Part shown: one piece after another, positions 4,397 to 53,809 of the stretch
Position numbering within the stretch: position 1 is the first letter of the stretch
Layout of the letters: the number at the start of each line of letters is the position of its first letter
Virus record (IMG/VR): IMGVR_UViG_3300032020_001000
Location: 1-64,000 of that record
Strand: one strand, 5' to 3'
Source of the DNA: a virus
DNA length: 64,000 nt
Made by a program: the position numbers and the translations under genes
The notes under the pieces: generated by a model
What the model saw: only the letters and a program-made list of their open reading frames with translations
What the model was told of the DNA's origin: nothing
Databases searched by the model: none

Positions 4397-4458
4397 GGCA
4401 GTCGGCAGTCGACGACGGGGGCCTGGGGGATGCCGATCACGCACACCCCCGGCCCCTA

Positions 4459-4549
4459 GCGCACGTCCGTTCGCTGTCCCAGGGCTGAAAAGAAAGTTCG
4501 GAAATAGGCCCCGGGGCGGTTGACTTGCATCGCCCCACGAGTGATGAAT
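4459..4549 (+). promoter_or_regulatory. repeated regulatory module, copy 1
   Basis: This intergenic stretch holds GCGCACGTCCGTTCGCTG (4459-4476), GAAAAGAAAGTTCGG, a GGCCCCGGGGC palindrome and TTGACT (4520-4525). The first three parts recur at 10874 and 47934. It precedes the amidoligase gene. The 210-nt gap 4397-4606 holds no credible gene. Confidence 0.6.
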
Positions 4550-4606: not shown

Positions 4607-5551
4607 ATGGCGCAGACGCAGGCAGCGAGCAGCAGGGCCGACGCCTACACCTTCGGCATCGAGATCGAGTGCCTTGTCCCCACCGCCGCCATCGTCAGGC
4701 TGGGCATCTCCATCGGCTCCTACCACCACGGATACCCGCTGCCAGCGCCCTTCCCGCAGGGATGGACGGCGGAGCATGACGCCACGATCCACACTCAGCG
4801 CAGCGACGAGACCTCGGTCGAAATCGTCAGCCCGGTGCTGAGGGGGGCGGCGGGCATCGAGCAGGTCAAACAGGTCGCGCAGACGCTGAGGGGGCTGGAG
4901 GCGCAGGTCAACTGCAGCTGCGGATTCCACGTGCACGTCGGAGCGGCCTCGGTGGCAGGGCACGACTACGCAGCACAGGCCGAATGGGTGGGCAAGCTGC
5001 TCTACCAGACGGCGATGCATGAGCGGGCGCTCTACGCCAGCACAGGCACCAGCGCCCGCGAGTGCAGCGCATACTGCGGGAGCGTGCACGCCGAGAAGCA
5101 TACGGCTGATGAACTGCGCCGCGCGCCGAAGGCCCGCAAGGCCGAGGCCCTGCGAGATGCCATCTACAACGGGCGCCGCTACCGCAGCCTCAACCTCACC
5201 AACCTGTTCACGCACAAGGCCACGGTCGAGTTCCGCTGGGCGGCCGGCACGGTCGAGTGGGTGAAGATGGTTGCTCACGTGCAGCAATGCCTGGCACTGG
5301 CTGAGCGCGCAACGGAGCAGACCAAGCTGGACTGGGGCGCACTCGCCAGCGAGCGCACCTACAAGCAGGCAGGCGCAGGCGCGCGCGCGCTCGACCGGTT
5401 CTTCTACCTCACCGGCTGGACGAAGGGCCGGCGGGACGTCGGGCAGCCGCAGGTGCAGATGGCCGGCTGGATTGCTGACCTGGCCGACCTCAAGCCGGTC
5501 AAGGTCGAGCTGAAGCGGCTGGCGCAGAAGTACGACCGGGGGGCGAATTGA
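4607..5551 (+). CDS. amidoligase family enzyme (COOH-NH2 ligase)
   Basis: ATG 4607 has GGAGAGG upstream; the longer in-frame start at 4520 overlaps the promoter and was rejected. The 314-aa protein shows the marks of the glutamine-synthetase-like amidoligase family: FGIEIEC (residue ~15), ETSVEIVSPV (~70), GFHVHV (~107) and ATVEFRWAAGT (~206). These enzymes form an amide bond between a carboxylate and an amine using ATP, often on proteins or peptides. The next gene, a class-II glutamine amidotransferase 1 nt away, is the typical partner and may supply or remove ammonia. The substrate is unknown. Confidence 0.85.
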   Translation: MAQTQAASSRADAYTFGIEIECLVPTAAIVRLGISIGSYHHGYPLPAPFPQGWTAEHDATIHTQRSDETSVEIVSPVLRGAAGIEQVKQVAQTLRGLEAQVNCSCGFHVHVGAASVAGHDYAAQAEWVGKLLYQTAMHERALYASTGTSARECSAYCGSVHAEKHTADELRRAPKARKAEALRDAIYNGRRYRSLNLTNLFTHKATVEFRWAAGTVEWVKMVAHVQQCLALAERATEQTKLDWGALASERTYKQAGAGARALDRFFYLTGWTKGRRDVGQPQVQMAGWIADLADLKPVKVELKRLAQKYDRGAN

Positions 5552-5552
5552 T

Positions 5553-6239
5553 ATGTGCGGCATCTTCGGATTCGCAGCAGAGGCGCGGTGGACGCCCGCG
5601 CAGCAACGGCTGGCGATGCGCCTGATGGAGGCGCTCGCCCGGGCCAGCGAGGAGCGCGGCGTAGACGCGGGCGGGTATGCAGCGCTGAGCGCGAACGGCG
5701 ACCTGCTCTGGGCGCGGCAGCCGGGGCCGGCGCACGAGCTGTTCGAGACGGCTTGGCGCCGGCTGGGGGAGCGCCGGCTGGTCGCCGCGATTGGACACAC
5801 GCGCTTTGCGACCCACGGGGCGCCGGCCACCAACGGCAACAACCACCCGCACATGGCGGGCGAGTGGGCGCTCGTCCATAACGGGGTTATCCCGCAGCAC
5901 AAGCGGAAGGCGCGCATACTGGGCATCCAGCTCCACGGCCAATGCGACAGCGAACTGCTGGCGCACATGCTGCGGCGCTACGGCGAAAGGCGCGGGCCGG
6001 CGGAATGCATGGCCCTGTGCGGGAGCCAGTCGGTGCTGGCGCTGCACGGAACCACCCGCGCGCTGCTGGCCTGGAGCAATGGTCGCATGCCGTTGGCGGC
6101 ATTCCGTATCGATGGCATGGATGGCTGGTGGTGGGCGTCGACCGCGGACATTGCAGCACGGGCGGCGGCAGCCGTGGGCATCGCAATAGTACCGGGGCGC
6201 ATCGCCAGCCACAAGGTCTACCGGATGGAGGCCCGCTGA
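5553..6239 (+). CDS. class-II glutamine amidotransferase domain protein
   Basis: The 228-aa product starts MCGIFGF, giving the N-terminal Cys nucleophile after Met removal. Further family motifs are IGHTRFATHG (~76), NHPHMAGEW (~92), VHNGVI (~105) and CDSELL (~127). It is a stand-alone Ntn-hydrolase domain without the synthetase half. Paired with the amidoligase at 4607, it is best read as a glutaminase/amidotransferase of a peptide- or metabolite-modifying pathway. Confidence 0.88.
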   Translation: MCGIFGFAAEARWTPAQQRLAMRLMEALARASEERGVDAGGYAALSANGDLLWARQPGPAHELFETAWRRLGERRLVAAIGHTRFATHGAPATNGNNHPHMAGEWALVHNGVIPQHKRKARILGIQLHGQCDSELLAHMLRRYGERRGPAECMALCGSQSVLALHGTTRALLAWSNGRMPLAAFRIDGMDGWWWASTADIAARAAAAVGIAIVPGRIASHKVYRMEAR

Positions 6240-10744: not shown

Positions 10745-10873
10745 CGCGCCAAGGCACACACGGCGGGACCCTGTGCGGCTGTGTGCGGTTCCCCGGGGTG
10801 GGGACGGCCGCAGGTAGCACTGGGCAGGGAACGGCGCACACGCAGGCAGACAGGGGGCATTTCGTGCGGCGCT

Positions 10874-10973
10874 GCGCACGGCCGTTCGCTGCCCGGCGGC
10901 CCGAAAAGACAGTTCGGCCCGCGCGAGAACAGGCGCCCACGCCGGTTGACTTTGCCTGTCGTTGTGGTAACAT
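10874..10973 (+). promoter_or_regulatory. repeated regulatory module, copy 2, with promoter
   Basis: GCGCACGGCCGTTCGCTG (10874-10891), GAAAAGACAGTTCGG, then TTGACT (10946-10951), 16-nt spacer, TAACAT (10968-10973), followed by GACTGTCCGAC. It serves the gene at 11019. The gap 10745-11018 otherwise holds no convincing gene; the ORF that runs through it crosses the promoter. Confidence 0.7.
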
Positions 10974-11018
10974 CCGACTGTCCGACAGGGCGGGCGGGAG
11001 CCCAGAGAGGAGCGGACG

Positions 11019-16838: not shown

Positions 16839-16898
16839 CAGTACCGGAGCCTCTCGTGCTCGGTGGTTTGGCTCAAGTATAACCCGCGAGAGGTCTCC

Positions 16899-17074
16899 TG
16901 ATAGCTCAACGAGGTCGCGAAGAGGTGATGGCACAGATGGATCAAGCAAGGCCGGCAGTTCCGACTGCCGGGCCCCGGGCGCCTGTACGCCCGCACGCCG
17001 ACGGAGCGCAGGAGAGGCGGGAATCCTGTGCCGGTCTCGGCAATTGGCCGGAGAAAAATGAGGCTACGGTCTAG
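16899..17074 (+). pseudogene. orphan 3' end of a TnpB/Cas12-like gene (array leader/scaffold)
   Basis: This stretch is ~95% identical to the last 176 nt of the nuclease gene ending at 32266 (8 substitutions, all transitions). Homology starts abruptly at TGATAGCTCA; upstream sequence is unrelated. The reading frame stays open to the same TAG, which is the start of repeat 1. Six of eight differences are synonymous, suggesting descent from a once-coding second copy. Four differences fall in one 20-nt hairpin (stem CCGGCAGT/ACTGCCGG, loop TCCG) and all keep its pairing. A second hairpin, CGGGCG/CGCCCG, is invariant. It may act as a stand-alone guide-RNA scaffold. Confidence 0.75.
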
Positions 17075-17247
17075 TGGGGCGCGCATTCACGGCCAACTAC
17101 AGGCAGGCGGCCCCTGTGCGCTCGTGCCCCTGGGGTGTAGTGGGGCGCGCATTCACGGCCAACTACAGGCGCTCGCTCGCATAGGACGCGTTCTCAACCG
17201 CTGTAGTGGGGCGCGCATTCACGGCCAACTACAGGGCCAACTACAGG
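17072..17247 (+). CRISPR. orphan CRISPR-like mini-array A (3 repeats, 2 spacers)
   Basis: Three identical 32-nt repeats start at 17072, 17138 and 17204 (exact 66-nt period) and begin TAGTGGGGCGCGCATTCACG, ending GGCCAACTACAGG. Two 34-nt spacers lie between, starting CAGGCGGCCC and CGCTCGCTCG. A partial extra repeat end (GGCCAACTACAGG) follows at 17234-17247. Both spacers are identical to those of array B at 32264. With a preceding G the repeat is a 30-nt imperfect palindrome (GTAGT ... ACTAC). No nuclease gene is adjacent. Confidence 0.85.
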
Positions 17248-24808: not shown

Positions 24809-25032
24809 GGACGATCATTGGCATCGGCGGATGGTGGTTGGCGGGGTGGTGGGTGCTGGACGGCCCACTGATGTGGCGGGTCGTGTGGATGGCGGTGGGA
24901 TTCGCCATCATCCTGTGCATCGGCGGCTGGGAGGAGAATGCGAGCGTGCGCAGACGAGCCGCGCGATCCCTGCGCCGGAATGCGCACAAGGTCCTGGGCC
25001 AGGACATCAGCGTCAAGTTGGGCGGCGGGTAG
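24805..25032 (+). CDS. small membrane protein, 75 aa
   Basis: GTG 24805 overlaps the sbcC stop. Two Trp-rich transmembrane helices (IGGWWLAGWWVLDGPLMW, VVWMAVGFAIILCIGGW) and a basic tail. Unknown. Confidence 0.6.
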   Translation: MRTIIGIGGWWLAGWWVLDGPLMWRVVWMAVGFAIILCIGGWEENASVRRRAARSLRRNAHKVLGQDISVKLGGG

Positions 25033-25163
25033 TGTATGCGTTAGCGATTGGCGCATGCCTCCATCGGCGCCGGAAGACGCCGCCGGGCGAATACGGTGCC
25101 GATTGCTGCCCGCCGCCCGCAATGAAAATCGAGAGGAGCCGACAGCATGAAGATCGACATTAA
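25032..25163 (+). CDS. small basic protein, paralog of 32960 (VYALAIGACLHRRRK family)
   Basis: GTG 25032 opens a 43-aa frame with YALAIGACLHRRRK and PPGEYGA. The same peptide occurs at 32960-33094. Between the copies several changes are synonymous (TTA/TTG, GAA/GAG), arguing that it is translated. Inverted ends GGGCGGCGGG ... CCCGCCGCCC flank the conserved block. Function unknown. Confidence 0.5.
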   Translation: MYALAIGACLHRRRKTPPGEYGADCCPPPAMKIERSRQHEDRH

Positions 25164-30910: not shown

Positions 30911-32266
30911 ATGGCATTCCGGCGGGGAAAAGCGAAGGCCGAAGGACGGATAATTGGGATTCGCTTCAAGGTGAGCGACCCGAAGCCGGCCGACCTGGCG
31001 ATGCTGAAGACGCTGGCAGCGCGCTGCCGCGAGTTGCGTTATCACCTCTTTGATTGGGCAGTCGCAAACGATGGTTCCGGGCCAGAGCACCTGCGCGCCA
31101 TGTATTACGAGGCCGCCCGCTTGGCGCCCGATCTGTCGGCAGACATGAGAGGCACGATTGCCGGGGAAATACGCACGGCGATCAAGCAGTATCGCAAAGT
31201 GCAGCGCCAGGACCCGCTGGCGCGCCCCTTCGAGTTCAAGCGCGTCATCATTCCGGTCAAGGTCTCAAGCATCTATGAGTTGGCGCCAGAAGGGGCGAAT
31301 GGTTATTGGCGGCTGCGTGTCGGACTATGGGCGAGGGGCGGCACTGAAGAAACCACGGCCAGTCTCCGTCTAGCCGCGGACACTAATCGCAACGGGGATG
31401 GCTATCAATTGGCGCACTACAATGCTGCGGTGGCCTGGGGACTGGAGGCAGGCTCCTCGCCGATAGGGGACGGTAAGATTGTGCTCCAACGCGGGAAGTG
31501 GCTCTACATTCAGGCCTTATCCTTGGCTCCGGTTATGGCGGTCGAGGGCCTGCGGGTTGCGGGGGTTGATGTGGGGCGCCATCATCTGGCAGTGGTGGCG
31601 ATGCCCGAGAACGGAAAGACGGAGTTCGTGGGGCGTTACAATTGGGTGCGCGACTTGATCGCCGACCGCTGGCGGAAGACTCGTCTCTATCGTGCGGGCC
31701 TGCGGAAGCGCGCCAATGCCGAAAGCGATAGGGCGGCTGACAAGACAAAGACAATCTGTCAGCAGGTGGCGGCTCGCGTCGCGGATGTGCTCGTGCAGTG
31801 GGAGGCCACGCACGTGGCGATGGAAGACCTGACCGGCATGAGGGAGAGACTCGCGGAAAAGTTCGGCGAGGGCACCGAGGGAGCCGTCGTCAATGCGCGC
31901 TTCCCCTACTATAGATTGCAGGCGGCGATTGAGTATGCTTGCGGGAAGGTTGGGATTGCCACCGTCAAGGTGGAGGCCAAATACAGTTCGCAGACGTGTT
32001 GGCGCTGCGGAGAAAGGGGCAAGCGGGATGGGCTAGAGTTTAGATGCGACGAGTGCGGCAAGGAGCATGCTGATGCAAATGCGGCCCGCGTGATAGCTCA
32101 GCGAGGTCGCGAAGAGGTGATGGCACAGATGGATCAAGCAAGGCCAGCGGTTCCGGCTGCTGGACCCCGGGCGCCTGTACGCCCGCACGCCGACGAAGCA
32201 CAGGAGAGGCGGGAATCCTGTGCCGGTCTCGGCAATTGGCCGGAGAAAAATGAGGCTACGGTCTAG
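30911..32266 (+). CDS. TnpB/Cas12-like RuvC nuclease associated with a CRISPR-like array
   Basis: 451 aa, start ATG 30911 with AGAGGGAAG upstream. The N-terminal ~210 aa form the WED/REC-like half (RIIGIRFKV, FKRVIIPVKVSS). The C-terminal half has the full RuvC/zinc-finger set: GVDVGRHHLAVV (D220), VAMEDLTG (E305), CWRCGERG and CDECGKEH (C363, C366, C379, C382), and HADANAARV (D388). This is the TnpB/Cas12 catalytic core, apparently intact. No TnpA transposase or IS605 left end is nearby. The TAG stop is the first three bases of repeat 1 of the array, and residues 394-451 are encoded by a segment repeated at 16899. Size fits TnpB and the smallest type V-U effectors. RNA-guided DNA cleavage or binding is inferred. 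Confidence 0.92.
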   Translation: MAFRRGKAKAEGRIIGIRFKVSDPKPADLAMLKTLAARCRELRYHLFDWAVANDGSGPEHLRAMYYEAARLAPDLSADMRGTIAGEIRTAIKQYRKVQRQDPLARPFEFKRVIIPVKVSSIYELAPEGANGYWRLRVGLWARGGTEETTASLRLAADTNRNGDGYQLAHYNAAVAWGLEAGSSPIGDGKIVLQRGKWLYIQALSLAPVMAVEGLRVAGVDVGRHHLAVVAMPENGKTEFVGRYNWVRDLIADRWRKTRLYRAGLRKRANAESDRAADKTKTICQQVAARVADVLVQWEATHVAMEDLTGMRERLAEKFGEGTEGAVVNARFPYYRLQAAIEYACGKVGIATVKVEAKYSSQTCWRCGERGKRDGLEFRCDECGKEHADANAARVIAQRGREEVMAQMDQARPAVPAAGPRAPVRPHADEAQERRESCAGLGNWPEKNEATV

Positions 32267-32295
32267 TGGGGCGCGCATTCACGGCCAACTACAGG
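32091..32295 (+). ncRNA. putative guide-RNA scaffold overlapping the 3' end of the nuclease gene and repeat 1
   Basis: This segment is coding (codons 394-451) yet is the part kept at the orphan locus 16899. It can form a hairpin CCAGCGGT/GCTGCTGG with loop TCCG, in which the orphan copy has pair-preserving changes, then CGGGCG/CGCCCG with loop CCTGTA, then short GC stems, and finally the palindromic repeat 1. TnpB omegaRNAs also overlap the gene end with the guide directly 3'; here spacer 1 would occupy the guide position. Expression is not shown. Confidence 0.6.
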
Positions 32296-32427
32296 CAGGC
32301 GGCCCCTGTGCGCTCGTGCCCCTGGGGTGTAGTGGGGCGCGCATTCACGGCCAACTACAGGCGCTCGCTCGCATAGGACGCGTTCTCAACCGCTGTAGTG
32401 GGGCGCGCATTCACGGCCAACTACAGG
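32264..32427 (+). CRISPR. CRISPR-like mini-array B (3 repeats, 2 spacers)
   Basis: Three identical 32-nt repeats start at 32264, 32330 and 32396 with an exact 66-nt period; spacers are 32296-32329 and 32362-32395, 34 nt each. Including one upstream base, repeats 2 and 3 form an imperfect palindrome: GTAGT, G.A mismatch, GG/CC, G.G mismatch, CG/CG, loop CGCATTCA. Repeat 1 has C in place of the first G. No cas1/cas2 is nearby. The array is identical in sequence to array A up to the last repeat. Confidence 0.88.
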
Positions 32428-32963: not shown

Positions 32964-33094
32964 ATGTTGGGCGGCGGGTAGTGTATGCGTTGGCGATTGG
33001 CGCATGCCTCCATCGGCGCCGGAAGAAGCCGCCGGGCGAGTACGGTGCCGCTTCCTGCCCGCCGCCCCATGTCCGGGAAAGGAGTCAATCGTGA
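32960..33094 (+). CDS. small basic protein, paralog of 25032, 44 aa
   Basis: ATG 32960 overlaps the previous stop. MNVGRRVVYALAIGACLHRR with PPGEYGA and CPPP. Related to 25032 and, at its ends (MNVGRR ... CPPPP), to 44477. The block is bounded by inverted GGGCGGCGGG/CCCGCCGCCC. Unknown function; conserved reading frame supports translation. Confidence 0.5.
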   Translation: MNVGRRVVYALAIGACLHRRRKKPPGEYGAASCPPPHVRERSQS

Positions 33095-47715: not shown

Positions 47716-47933
47716 CGCGGCGAGCCGGGAGAGTGAGTGGCAGGGCATGGGGACGGCAGCGCGCGCTGCCGTTTCGCATTGATGGGTCGGGGTCCGGGTC
47801 CGGTGGCCCAGAGGCCAGCAGCGCGCACCAGGGCAGCCGTGTGGGGCACTGGGGATGGGAATGGTGGGCAGCCAGGGGCAGGGCGGCGGGCGGGACACAC
47901 GGGGGCATGTGGGGGCAGTTTCTGGGGCATGGA

Positions 47934-48021
47934 GCGCACGTCCGTTCGCTGTTTGAGGTCGAAAAGAAATCTGGCCCCAGGGCCCCGGGGCGGTTGACTT
48001 TGGCCGCCGGTGTGGTAACAT
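47934..48021 (+). promoter_or_regulatory. repeated regulatory module, copy 3, with promoter
   Basis: GCGCACGTCCGTTCGCTG (47934-47951), GAAAAGAAATCTGG, GGCCCCGGGGC, TTGACT (47994-47999), 16-nt spacer, TAACAT (48016-48021), then GACTGTCAGAC. The whole gap 47716-48072 has no convincing gene; its left part is a GC-rich tract with GGCA and GGGACACACGGG repeats. Confidence 0.7.
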
Positions 48022-48072
48022 CGGACTGTCAGACGCAGGCAAGCAGGGGCACAGCCCCGGAAGGGAACGGAG

Positions 48073-48375
48073 ATGACGGAGAAGACACGGATCGAGAAGC
48101 TGGAGAACCCGCAGGACCTGCTGACGCTGCTGAAGCTGCCGCGCACCTTCGAGTGGGACGGGAGCACCTGGGAGCATGGCAGCTCGAGCGCCGAGAGCAT
48201 GGCGGCGATGCTCGGTCTGCACGGACCCGAGAGAGTATACGCGCCGACCATCGAGTGGATGGCGCACGACAAGGATGCGCACGGGAACTTCACTCGCCAT
48301 CAGCGGATTCAGATGGTGTTCGAGGTTGACGGCACGACCATCAGCGCCGACCGCGTGGAGGTGATGAAGTACTGA
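48073..48375 (+). CDS. hypothetical early protein, 100 aa
   Basis: ATG 48073 with GGAAGGGAACGGAG upstream, 50 nt after promoter module 3. Soluble alpha/beta protein (RIEKLENPQDLLTLLKL, IQMVFEVDGTTISADRVEV). Unknown. Confidence 0.65.
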   Translation: MTEKTRIEKLENPQDLLTLLKLPRTFEWDGSTWEHGSSSAESMAAMLGLHGPERVYAPTIEWMAHDKDAHGNFTRHQRIQMVFEVDGTTISADRVEVMKY

Positions 48376-48450
48376 GCGAAACGGGGCTGCGGCCCCGTCC
48401 GCCGGGGATGGCCGCCCGGCGCTGAAGAGCCAGGCCAGAGAGGAATGGAG

Positions 48451-51645: not shown

Positions 51646-52179
51646 ATGAGATGGGTAGTCGTTGTGGCGGTGCTGTTGCTGATAGCAGGAATTGGCTGGA
51701 GCGCAGGCGATGAAGCAGGACGCGACCTTTCGGTGGCAGTCCTTTACGGTCAGGGCTCCAGCGGCGGTGATGCAGCGTTTGGTATGGAACTGATCGGGGG
51801 TCGCGGCGCAGATTGGGATGGAGTGGCGCTGTGGCTTTCGGGCAAGCCCTTCCAGGGAGAGGATGTGATTGACACATCCATTCCGCATGGCGACTATCGC
51901 GTCCGCGAGGAGCACGGATCGATTGGGCTGCAGTACCTGCATGGATCGGGAACTCCGCGCGCGCTGGCCATCGTCGGTGTCGGCTTCATCATGGATGAGA
52001 CCCGCTACATTCAAGTTTCCAACGTCACGGGCTGGGAGTGGGCCGGCGGATCTGATACGCATTACGAGGTGACCGCACAGGTCGGCGGCCGCCTGCAGCT
52101 TGCGCCCGGGCTCAGCTTGCGCGCGGGCTATGATAGCCATTACCGCGCCTTTGGCGGCCTGGCCTTTCAATCGCGGTAG
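51646..52179 (+). CDS. exported beta-barrel-like protein, 177 aa
   Basis: ATG 51646 with CAGGAGGGA. Signal peptide (RWVVVVAVLLLIAGIGWSAG). Mature region is a series of amphipathic strands (VAVLYGQGSSGGDAAFGMEL, GVALWLSGKPF, VTAQVGGRLQLAPGLSLRAG), fitting a small outer-membrane barrel. Compare 3223. Probably envelope-directed. Confidence 0.6.
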   Translation: MRWVVVVAVLLLIAGIGWSAGDEAGRDLSVAVLYGQGSSGGDAAFGMELIGGRGADWDGVALWLSGKPFQGEDVIDTSIPHGDYRVREEHGSIGLQYLHGSGTPRALAIVGVGFIMDETRYIQVSNVTGWEWAGGSDTHYEVTAQVGGRLQLAPGLSLRAGYDSHYRAFGGLAFQSR

Positions 52180-52272
52180 GGGCTATAACGACACCAGGCA
52201 GGGGAGACCGGGGCACACGCGGGCAGCTGCGGGGCAACCGCAAGGGCTGTGTGTGGACCCGCCCTCGTGTGG

Positions 52273-52316
52273 TATAATCGAGACGGGCCGCCTGCGGGAA
52301 AACTGTGGGCGGCCCG
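52273..52316 (+). promoter_or_regulatory. extended -10 promoter followed by a 9-bp hairpin
   Basis: TGGTATAAT (TATAAT 52273-52278) without a clear -35, then CGGGCCGCC (52284-52292) pairing perfectly with GGCGGCCCG (52308-52316). The hairpin sits at the very 5' end of the transcript for the methyltransferase gene. Confidence 0.6.
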
Positions 52317-52342
52317 GCTTGTGGCCCTGCCTGGAGAGTGCA

Positions 52343-53809
52343 TTGACTGAACCGACCGACTGGTTGCGCCTGCCGCTCGAGCGGCTGCTGGCGAATCCGC
52401 GCAACTACCGCAGGCATCCCGAGGCGCAGATCGCGGCGCTCCGCGCCAACCTCAGTCGTCATGGGCAGCAGAAGCCCGTGGTGATCCGCTCGGACGACAC
52501 GATCCTGGCCGGCCACGCGCTGGTGGAGGCGGCGCGGCAGTCGGGCTGGAGCGAGATCGGCATACGCGTCTACGACGGCACCGCCCCCGACGCATTCCTG
52601 GTCGACGATAACGAGTCGGTGCGCCTGGCAGAGGATGATGACCAGGCACTCGCCGGGCTGCTGCGAGAGCGCATGGAGGCGGGGACGCTGGACTCCACGG
52701 GCTGGGGAGAGGATGAGGTGCGGGCGCTGCTCGAGCGCATCGAGGCGGAGCAGCACCAGGTGCAGGGCGAAGATCCGGGGCCGGGGGAGGCGCCGGCGGA
52801 GCCGGTAACGCGCCCGGGCGACTTATGGCTGCTGGGCGAGCACCGGCTGCTGTGCGGTGACTGCATGGTCGAGGGCGACATCGACCGCCTCATGGCCGGC
52901 GAGAAGGCCGGGTGCTGCGTGACGTCGCCGCCCTACGCCATGCAGCGAGAATCGACGTACGGCGGCACCCCCGCCTCCGATTATCCCGCCTGGTTCCGGC
53001 GCGTGGCAGCCCAGGTGTGGAGCGCGCTCGATGAGGCCGGCAGTTTCTTTCTGAACCTCAAAGAACACGTCGAGGATGGCCAGCGCAGCCTCTACGTCAT
53101 GCGTACGGTGATCGCTCTCGTCGAGGCGGGTTGGCGCTACGTGGATCAGCTGATCTGGGTGAAGCCCGGGCTGCCGGGCGAGCACTACCCGCGCTTGAAG
53201 AATGACTTCGAGCCGATTCATTTCTTCGCGCGGCAGGACGCCGTCAACTGGCAAGTGCGGGTTGTGGACATGAACCGCGACTGGCTGGCGGAGACCGACT
53301 TCAACCTGGCGGAGATGTATGAGGACATCTTCCAGTTCTCCAAGCAGTTCCGGATCAGGTTCCGACCGCGCGCAGTGGGGCACCGAAGCACGGGCGTTCC
53401 TGAGTATCAAGGGCCCGGCGGCTCCTACGGCCCCAGCGGGAACATCAGCCTGAACGATGATGTGCGAGTCTCAGGCATCGCGCGCCCGGGCAACGTGCAG
53501 CATTTTGGACTAAATCGTGAATCCTTCGATCATCCGGCGGTGTTCCCGGTGGCGCTGCCGGCCTTCTTCATGCGCTTGACCACCGAGGAAGGCGGGCTGA
53601 CCTTCGAACCCTTCTCCGGCGCGGGCACGACCATCATCGCCGCGGAGCAGAACCAGCGCCGATGCGTCGCCGTGGAACTGGTGCCGGCCTACTGCGACGT
53701 CGCTATCGAGCGCTGGCAGCGCATGACCGGACGCCCAGTGTCCCATGCGGAGACAGGCAGAACCTTCGCCGAGTACACTCAGGAGCGTGCTCAGGGCGGC
53801 GCAGAGTGA
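52343..53809 (+). CDS. ParB-domain / DNA methyltransferase fusion
   Basis: TTG 52343 (LTEPTDWLRLPL) with GGAGAG upstream is the likely start; no ATG lies nearby in frame. Residues 1-90 are a ParB/Srx domain (NPRNYRRHPEAQIAALRANL, GHALVEAARQSGWSEI). The methyltransferase follows: LLCGDC, VTSPPYAMQ (motif IV SPPY), LIWVKPG, FEPFSGAGTTIIAAE (motif I) and RRCVAVEL. SPPY order points to an N4-cytosine or N6-adenine beta-type enzyme. Such fusions are common in phages and may protect DNA. Confidence 0.88.
   Translation: MTEPTDWLRLPLERLLANPRNYRRHPEAQIAALRANLSRHGQQKPVVIRSDDTILAGHALVEAARQSGWSEIGIRVYDGTAPDAFLVDDNESVRLAEDDDQALAGLLRERMEAGTLDSTGWGEDEVRALLERIEAEQHQVQGEDPGPGEAPAEPVTRPGDLWLLGEHRLLCGDCMVEGDIDRLMAGEKAGCCVTSPPYAMQRESTYGGTPASDYPAWFRRVAAQVWSALDEAGSFFLNLKEHVEDGQRSLYVMRTVIALVEAGWRYVDQLIWVKPGLPGEHYPRLKNDFEPIHFFARQDAVNWQVRVVDMNRDWLAETDFNLAEMYEDIFQFSKQFRIRFRPRAVGHRSTGVPEYQGPGGSYGPSGNISLNDDVRVSGIARPGNVQHFGLNRESFDHPAVFPVALPAFFMRLTTEEGGLTFEPFSGAGTTIIAAEQNQRRCVAVELVPAYCDVAIERWQRMTGRPVSHAETGRTFAEYTQERAQGGAE

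What the first reader, a model, noticed from the sequence alone, without database searches (positions are those of the whole stretch)
16899..17247. Second, effector-less copy of scaffold plus array with identical spacers
The last 176 nt of the nuclease gene and the complete array recur 15,192 bp upstream. The array is identical, while the coding-derived leader differs at 8 sites. Homology starts sharply at TGATAGCTCA just after the codons of the last catalytic motif (D388). Retaining only the part that could be a guide RNA suggests a stand-alone guide locus working in trans. Identical spacers against a diverged leader suggest gene conversion or strong constraint on the array.
Basis: partly seen in the sequence, partly recalled or inferred. 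Interest (0 to 1): 0.87.

Follow-up and report, generated by a model that had tools for sequence, protein, structure and literature searches.

The report
Phage guide-RNA module copied without nuclease
A virus of bacteria carries a small CRISPR-like cutting enzyme followed by its guide-RNA cassette, and also a second copy of the cassette alone 15 kb away; this looks like a way to make guides without destroying the enzyme's own messenger, though neither copy has been shown to be active.

Summary
In an 83.9-kb tailed-phage record, 16899-17235 repeats 32091-32427 (337 nt, offset 15,192, 8 differences). The repeat holds the last 176 nt of a Cas12f/TnpB-like nuclease gene plus a mini-array of three 34-nt repeats and two 32-nt spacers. 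The nuclease keeps its RuvC triad (D220, E305, D388) and zinc finger. All 8 differences are transitions in the first 110 nt; the last 227 nt are identical. Five differences fall in predicted stems, none breaks a pair, and one is a two-sided compensation. Six of eight are third codon positions. The segments' flanks differ, so an assembly duplicate is unlikely. Related phages lack the nuclease and both cassettes. No protospacer was found.

Best reading: a compact type V mini-CRISPR whose tracr-like scaffold overlaps the 3' end of its effector gene, with the scaffold-array module also present as an effector-less second locus. The separate copy may supply guides without consuming nuclease mRNA. 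Action in trans is inferred; a non-functional recombination relic is the main rival. An Alicyclobacillus phage with a Cas12f-like nuclease carries two tandem scaffold-array modules, so module duplication is not unique. I rate it a new variant of a known kind.

The parts
16878..16883 (+). TATAAC, -10-like hexamer 15 nt upstream of the start of homology (possible promoter of the stand-alone cassette)
   Evidence: Direct reading; hexamers within 1 mismatch of TATAAT are rare in this GC-rich window, 0.017 expected per 30 positions. The strict sigma-70 scan found no promoter.
16899..17069 (+). Locus A scaffold (tracr/omegaRNA-like), effector-less copy of the nuclease gene's 3' end
   Evidence: 8 transitions relative to locus B
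16952..16971 (+). Hairpin CCGGCAGU-UCCG-ACUGCCGG (locus B: CCAGCGGU-UCCG-GCUGCUGG); four differences, all pairs kept, G-C to A-U compensation at 16954/16969
17043..17069 (+). Candidate anti-repeat: UUGGCCG and GCUACG can pair with the two ends of the repeat
   Evidence: RNAduplex -19.5 kcal/mol, P = 0.02 against shuffles, but not special among GC-rich ORF windows: weak
17070..17103 (+). Locus A repeat 1 (TCTAGT variant, overlaps the stop codon TAG)
17104..17135 (+). Locus A spacer 1 CAGGCGGCCCCTGTGCGCTCGTGCCCCTGGGG
   Evidence: no significant protospacer
17136..17169 (+). Locus A repeat 2 TGTAGTGGGGCGCGCATTCACGGCCAACTACAGG, hairpin-forming
   Evidence: fold z -2.55
17170..17201 (+). Locus A spacer 2 CGCTCGCTCGCATAGGACGCGTTCTCAACCGC
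   Evidence: no significant protospacer
17202..17235 (+). Locus A repeat 3; homology to locus B ends at 17235
17236..17247 (+). Extra 12-nt copy of the repeat's 3' end, only in locus A
30911..32266 (+). Cas12f/TnpB-like RNA-guided nuclease gene, 451 aa, RuvC D220/E305/D388, zinc Cys 363/366/379/382
   Evidence: PF07282 3.4e-16; alignment; PDB best Cas12f 9.5e-11; Foldseek best AsCas12f 4.5e-15
32091..32261 (+). Locus B scaffold, inside the nuclease gene's 3' end
32262..32427 (+). Locus B mini-array, three repeats and two spacers, identical to locus A

Best explanation
The phage encodes a compact type V mini-CRISPR system: a Cas12f/TnpB-like nuclease whose guide scaffold is read from the last 176 nt of its own gene, followed by a two-spacer array. 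Locus A is an effector-less copy of the whole guide module. Proposed working: (1) locus B mRNA is either translated or cut into scaffold plus crRNA, and cutting removes the last 58 codons, so one transcript cannot do both; (2) locus A, read from its own or an upstream promoter, gives the same two guides in trans without consuming nuclease mRNA; (3) the complex cuts DNA carrying the two protospacers, most likely rival phages or plasmids. Shown: anatomy, intact active site, near-identity of the modules, pairing-preserving differences. Inferred: transcription, processing, trans loading, target.
For: Sharp retention of only scaffold plus array. Intact RuvC triad and zinc finger. Array adjacent to the effector, with palindromic repeats. 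5 of 8 differences in stems, 0 pairs broken, 1 double compensation; P of all three about 0.004-0.01 for random transitions. 227-nt identical 3' block, P about 1e-4. -10-like hexamer just upstream. Parallel: Alicyclobacillus phage MMB025 has two tandem scaffold-array modules beside a Cas12f-like gene. [quoted passage not shown]
Against: No RNA data. The scaffold is not more stable than shuffled sequence. The candidate anti-repeat is weak. 6 of 8 differences are third codon positions (P = 0.02), which a purely non-coding history of locus A would not give. No relative carries either module, so conservation cannot be tested. No protospacer found. The strict promoter scan found none.
Confidence: 0.48

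Rival explanations
1. Recombination relic: locus A is the 3' tail of a second nuclease-array allele (from duplication or another phage) whose 5' part was lost, with no present function. The identical 3' block reflects recent gene conversion or recent exchange.
For: 6 of 8 differences at third codon positions fit divergence while coding. The record has other segmental duplicates, e.g. 25017-25118/32966-33067 at 95%. Both sites are accessory: the colinear relative G001 lacks them.
Against: The break falls at the start of the part that could be a guide. Stem pairs are kept, with one compensation. No fragment of a second nuclease gene was found.
Confidence: 0.33
2. Locus A is a non-autonomous mobile element, PATE/MITE-like, moved through the right-end-like part of an IS605-type element.
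For: Both copies sit in sites without the module in the nearest colinear relative. Other TnpB genes occur in IS elements.
Against: No TnpA (Y1_Tnp) in the record, no left end, only two copies, no target-site duplication seen.
Confidence: 0.06
3. The repeat-bearing RNA of locus A is a decoy that blocks a host type V effector (RNA anti-CRISPR), rather than a guide for the phage nuclease.
For: Phage-borne repeat units acting as Racr are known (PMC11656645).
Against: The phage has its own intact nuclease. The 32-nt repeat core was not found in 84,980 species genomes (exact match only). Complete spacers are kept.
Confidence: 0.07
4. Assembly artefact: one of the loci is a false duplicate.
For: Single metagenomic record; no reads available.
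Against: Different flanks on both sides, 8 real differences that respect codons and pairs, and a 12-nt indel at the end of locus A.
Confidence: 0.04

Closest known systems
Type V-F CRISPR-Cas12f (AsCas12f group)
   Same: Compact nuclease, RuvC plus TNB zinc finger, short array with tracr-like scaffold; best PDB sequence and fold match.
   Different: Scaffold overlaps the effector gene's 3' end, only two spacers, no cas1, phage-borne, and a second scaffold-array module lies 15 kb away.
TnpB-CRISPR associations (subtype V-U, about 50 inferred events, PMC12669027) and TranC (Jin et al. 2025, doi 10.1016/j.cell.2025.09.004; paper not held, content recalled)
   Same: TnpB-like nuclease next to a CRISPR array, scaffold in TnpB-like position.
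   Different: I found no described case with an effector-less duplicate of scaffold plus array, but the key papers could not be read.
TnpB/omegaRNA (IS200/IS605, PMC8612924)
   Same: Guide scaffold encoded at the 3' end of the nuclease gene.
   Different: Guides come from array spacers, not flanking DNA; no TnpA or transposon ends.
Stand-alone omegaRNA loci of IscB (recalled, Altae-Tran 2021)
   Same: Effector-less guide locus acting in trans.
   Different: Different nuclease family; no arrays.
Virus-borne mini-CRISPR arrays (PMC6858448, PMC11656645)
   Same: 1-2 spacers, no cas1/cas2, in a virus.
   Different: Those use host effectors; this phage has its own effector, and the repeat is in no held host genome.
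Alicyclobacillus phage MMB025 locus (L008)
   Same: Phage Cas12f-like gene with two diverged scaffold-array modules.
   Different: Modules are tandem, upstream of the gene, with different repeats and spacers.

Membership tests
Type V-F CRISPR-Cas12f | Compact RuvC nuclease with Cas12f1-like TNB domain | tested here: met
   PF07282 59.6 bits, cut-off 26.3; active site intact
Type V-F CRISPR-Cas12f | Effector groups with Cas12f rather than TnpB | tested here: inconclusive
   Cas12f ranks above TnpB in phmmer and Foldseek, but the model is low-confidence in the N-terminal half, the tree branch is long and unplaced, and NCBIfam Cas12f2 scores 63.8 against cut-off 450
Type V-F CRISPR-Cas12f | Adjacent CRISPR array | tested here: met
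   Three 34-nt repeats, two 32-nt spacers directly after the gene
Type V-F CRISPR-Cas12f | tracrRNA with anti-repeat | tested here: inconclusive
   Candidate at 17043-17069, P = 0.02, not specific
TnpB (IS200/IS605 OMEGA) | Over the curated TnpB family cut-off | tested here: not met
   NF040570 85.3 bits, cut-off 100
TnpB (IS200/IS605 OMEGA) | Transposon context: TnpA, left and right ends | tested here: not met
   No Y1_Tnp in the record; ends not seen. Isolated tnpB genes exist, so this is not decisive
[quoted passage not shown]
   Duplication boundaries and kept pairs fit; no RNA data
Virus-borne mini-CRISPR array | Repeat identical to host CRISPR repeat | tested here: not met
   Exact 32-nt repeat core absent from genome contigs; host unknown, inexact repeats not tested
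Virus-borne mini-CRISPR array | Spacers match related viruses | tested here: not met
Adaptive CRISPR-Cas | Adaptation genes (cas1) | tested here: not met
   with 9 of 14 controls positive

The most novel reading that the evidence does not exclude
A phage has separated guide production from effector production in a TnpB-to-Cas12 intermediate: a stand-alone scaffold-array locus supplies guides in trans, easing the conflict between translating the nuclease mRNA and cutting it into guide RNA.
Probability: 0.33. Interest if true: 0.75.

Novelty: new variant of a known kind. Interest (0 to 1): 0.52.

Why it matters
In TnpB-like loci the guide is carved from the nuclease's own mRNA. How such a locus turned into a CRISPR system with separate tracrRNA and arrays is an open question, and an effector-less module beside an intact overlapping locus would be a natural example of that step. 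It makes the question testable: does the separate module load the nuclease, and does it allow more nuclease to be made?

Tried and rejected
Relatives of the nuclease by single-protein scan of IMG/VR: none confirmed. By the two-sequence alignment A2: ten distant TnpB-like loci, none with an array, and none in genome contigs. A1 was too diverse to scan with. Exact repeat and spacer seeds in IMG/VR, and the exact repeat in genome contigs: nothing. Spacers against phages and plasmids: only chance-level hits, E about 1 or worse. Self-targets: none. Spacers against 707 kb of fetched loci: only a copy of the locus itself and one chance 16/18 match. Rfam: no family for the scaffold or array. Global fold stability of the scaffold: not unusual, so I do not use it. 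Tree: window branch length 2.39, unplaced. AlphaFold: confident for the RuvC half only, mean pLDDT 56.7.

Full report
OBSERVATION. The window is bases 1-64000 of an 83,861-base IMG/VR virus record. The record encodes terminase, portal, minor head and major head proteins, so it is a tailed phage; its host is unknown. Segment 16899-17235 repeats at 32091-32427 without gaps, 97.6% identical, and nothing else in the record repeats so strongly. The eight differences are all transitions, at 16909, 16954, 16957, 16964, 16969, 16972, 17004 and 17008; 17009-17235 is identical. The downstream locus is the last 176 nt of the nuclease gene 30911-32266 and a mini-array. The array has three 34-nt repeats (TGTAGTGGGGCGCGCATTCACGGCCAACTACAGG; the first copy begins TCTAG and contains the stop codon) and two 32-nt spacers. 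Flanks differ on both sides, and locus A carries an extra 12-nt repeat end (17236-17247).

THE NUCLEASE. The 451-aa protein has a Cas12f1-like TNB domain, the RuvC residues D220, E305 and D388, and four zinc cysteines. The best PDB sequence match is a Cas12f (9.5e-11). The predicted RuvC half is confident, the rest is not. Foldseek ranks AsCas12f first (4.5e-15) and TnpB lower (1.3e-8). The NCBIfam TnpB and Cas12f2 models match below their cut-offs. The tree does not place it. I therefore call it Cas12f/TnpB-like. There is no TnpA, no Cas1 and no second TNB-domain gene in the record.

WHAT THE EIGHT DIFFERENCES SAY. Five lie in stems of the common predicted structure, none breaks a pair, and 16954/16969 is a G-C to A-U double change. 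Random transitions do as well with P about 0.004-0.01. Six of eight are third codon positions (P = 0.02), so coding constraint acted on the divergence. All eight fall in the first 110 of 337 nt (P about 1e-4 if spread evenly), so the 3' part was homogenised, is more constrained, or was exchanged recently. These P values are post hoc and not corrected for the number of things examined. The scaffold as a whole folds no better than shuffles. The candidate anti-repeat at 17043-17069 is weak. A TATAAC hexamer ends 15 nt before the homology start (0.017 such sites expected per 30 positions), but the strict promoter scan finds nothing.

RELATIVES. Forty-two IMG/VR loci encode a relative of the portal protein. 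Of 29 records searched, none has the nuclease or the module, while five have the gene downstream of locus A. In the nearest colinear relative (G001, L079) site A has neither the integrase nor the cassette, and site B is several kilobases shorter and lacks the nuclease. Many of these records are fragments, so absence is weak evidence except in the colinear one. Distant TnpB-like viral loci have no arrays. Alicyclobacillus phage MMB025, however, has a Cas12f-like gene with two diverged tandem scaffold-array modules upstream (alignment score 111, best of 200 shuffles 63). Module duplication has thus occurred beside compact type V nucleases in at least one other phage.

TARGETS. No protospacer was found in the record, the fetched relatives, phages, plasmids, or IMG/VR by 20-nt exact seeds.

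MECHANISM. [quoted passage not shown] If locus B works like that, making a guide destroys an mRNA. Locus A would give the same guides without that cost. This is an inference; a recombination relic explains the third-codon bias at least as well. Identical spacers mean locus A adds no new target.

KNOWN OR NEW. TnpB-array associations (about 50 inferred, PMC12669027), viral mini-arrays (PMC6858448, PMC11656645) and stand-alone omegaRNAs (recalled) are known. The combination found here, an effector-less scaffold-array copy beside an intact locus whose scaffold overlaps the gene, I did not find described, but two key papers (Altae-Tran 2023; Jin 2025) were not held.

Noticed in passing
window 25017-25120 and 32966-33069: A second duplicated non-coding element, 95% identical over 102 nt, folding as a three-way junction closed by a long terminal inverted repeat (z -5.8 and -3.2), each copy just before a small ORF. 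No Rfam match; not found in relatives.
   Followed up: partly
window 48374-48439 +: Type II hammerhead ribozyme (RF02276, 53.3 bits, gathering 37).
   Followed up: no
L008 about 184-461 and 485-839 (Alicyclobacillus phage MMB025): Two tandem, diverged scaffold-plus-array modules upstream of a Cas12f-like gene annotated as transposase; only the second is annotated as CRISPR.
   Followed up: partly
window 17236-17247: 12-nt tail of the repeat duplicated after the last repeat of locus A: a tandem slip or the remnant of a lost repeat-spacer unit.
   Followed up: no
window 4610-6236: Neighbouring amidoligase and glutamine amidotransferase genes in a phage.
   Followed up: no
window 52124-53806: ParB-like domain fused to a DNA methyltransferase.
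   Followed up: no
window 4458-4526, 10853-10986, 47911-48034: Diffuse dispersed repeats of about 70-80% identity, unexplained.
   Followed up: no
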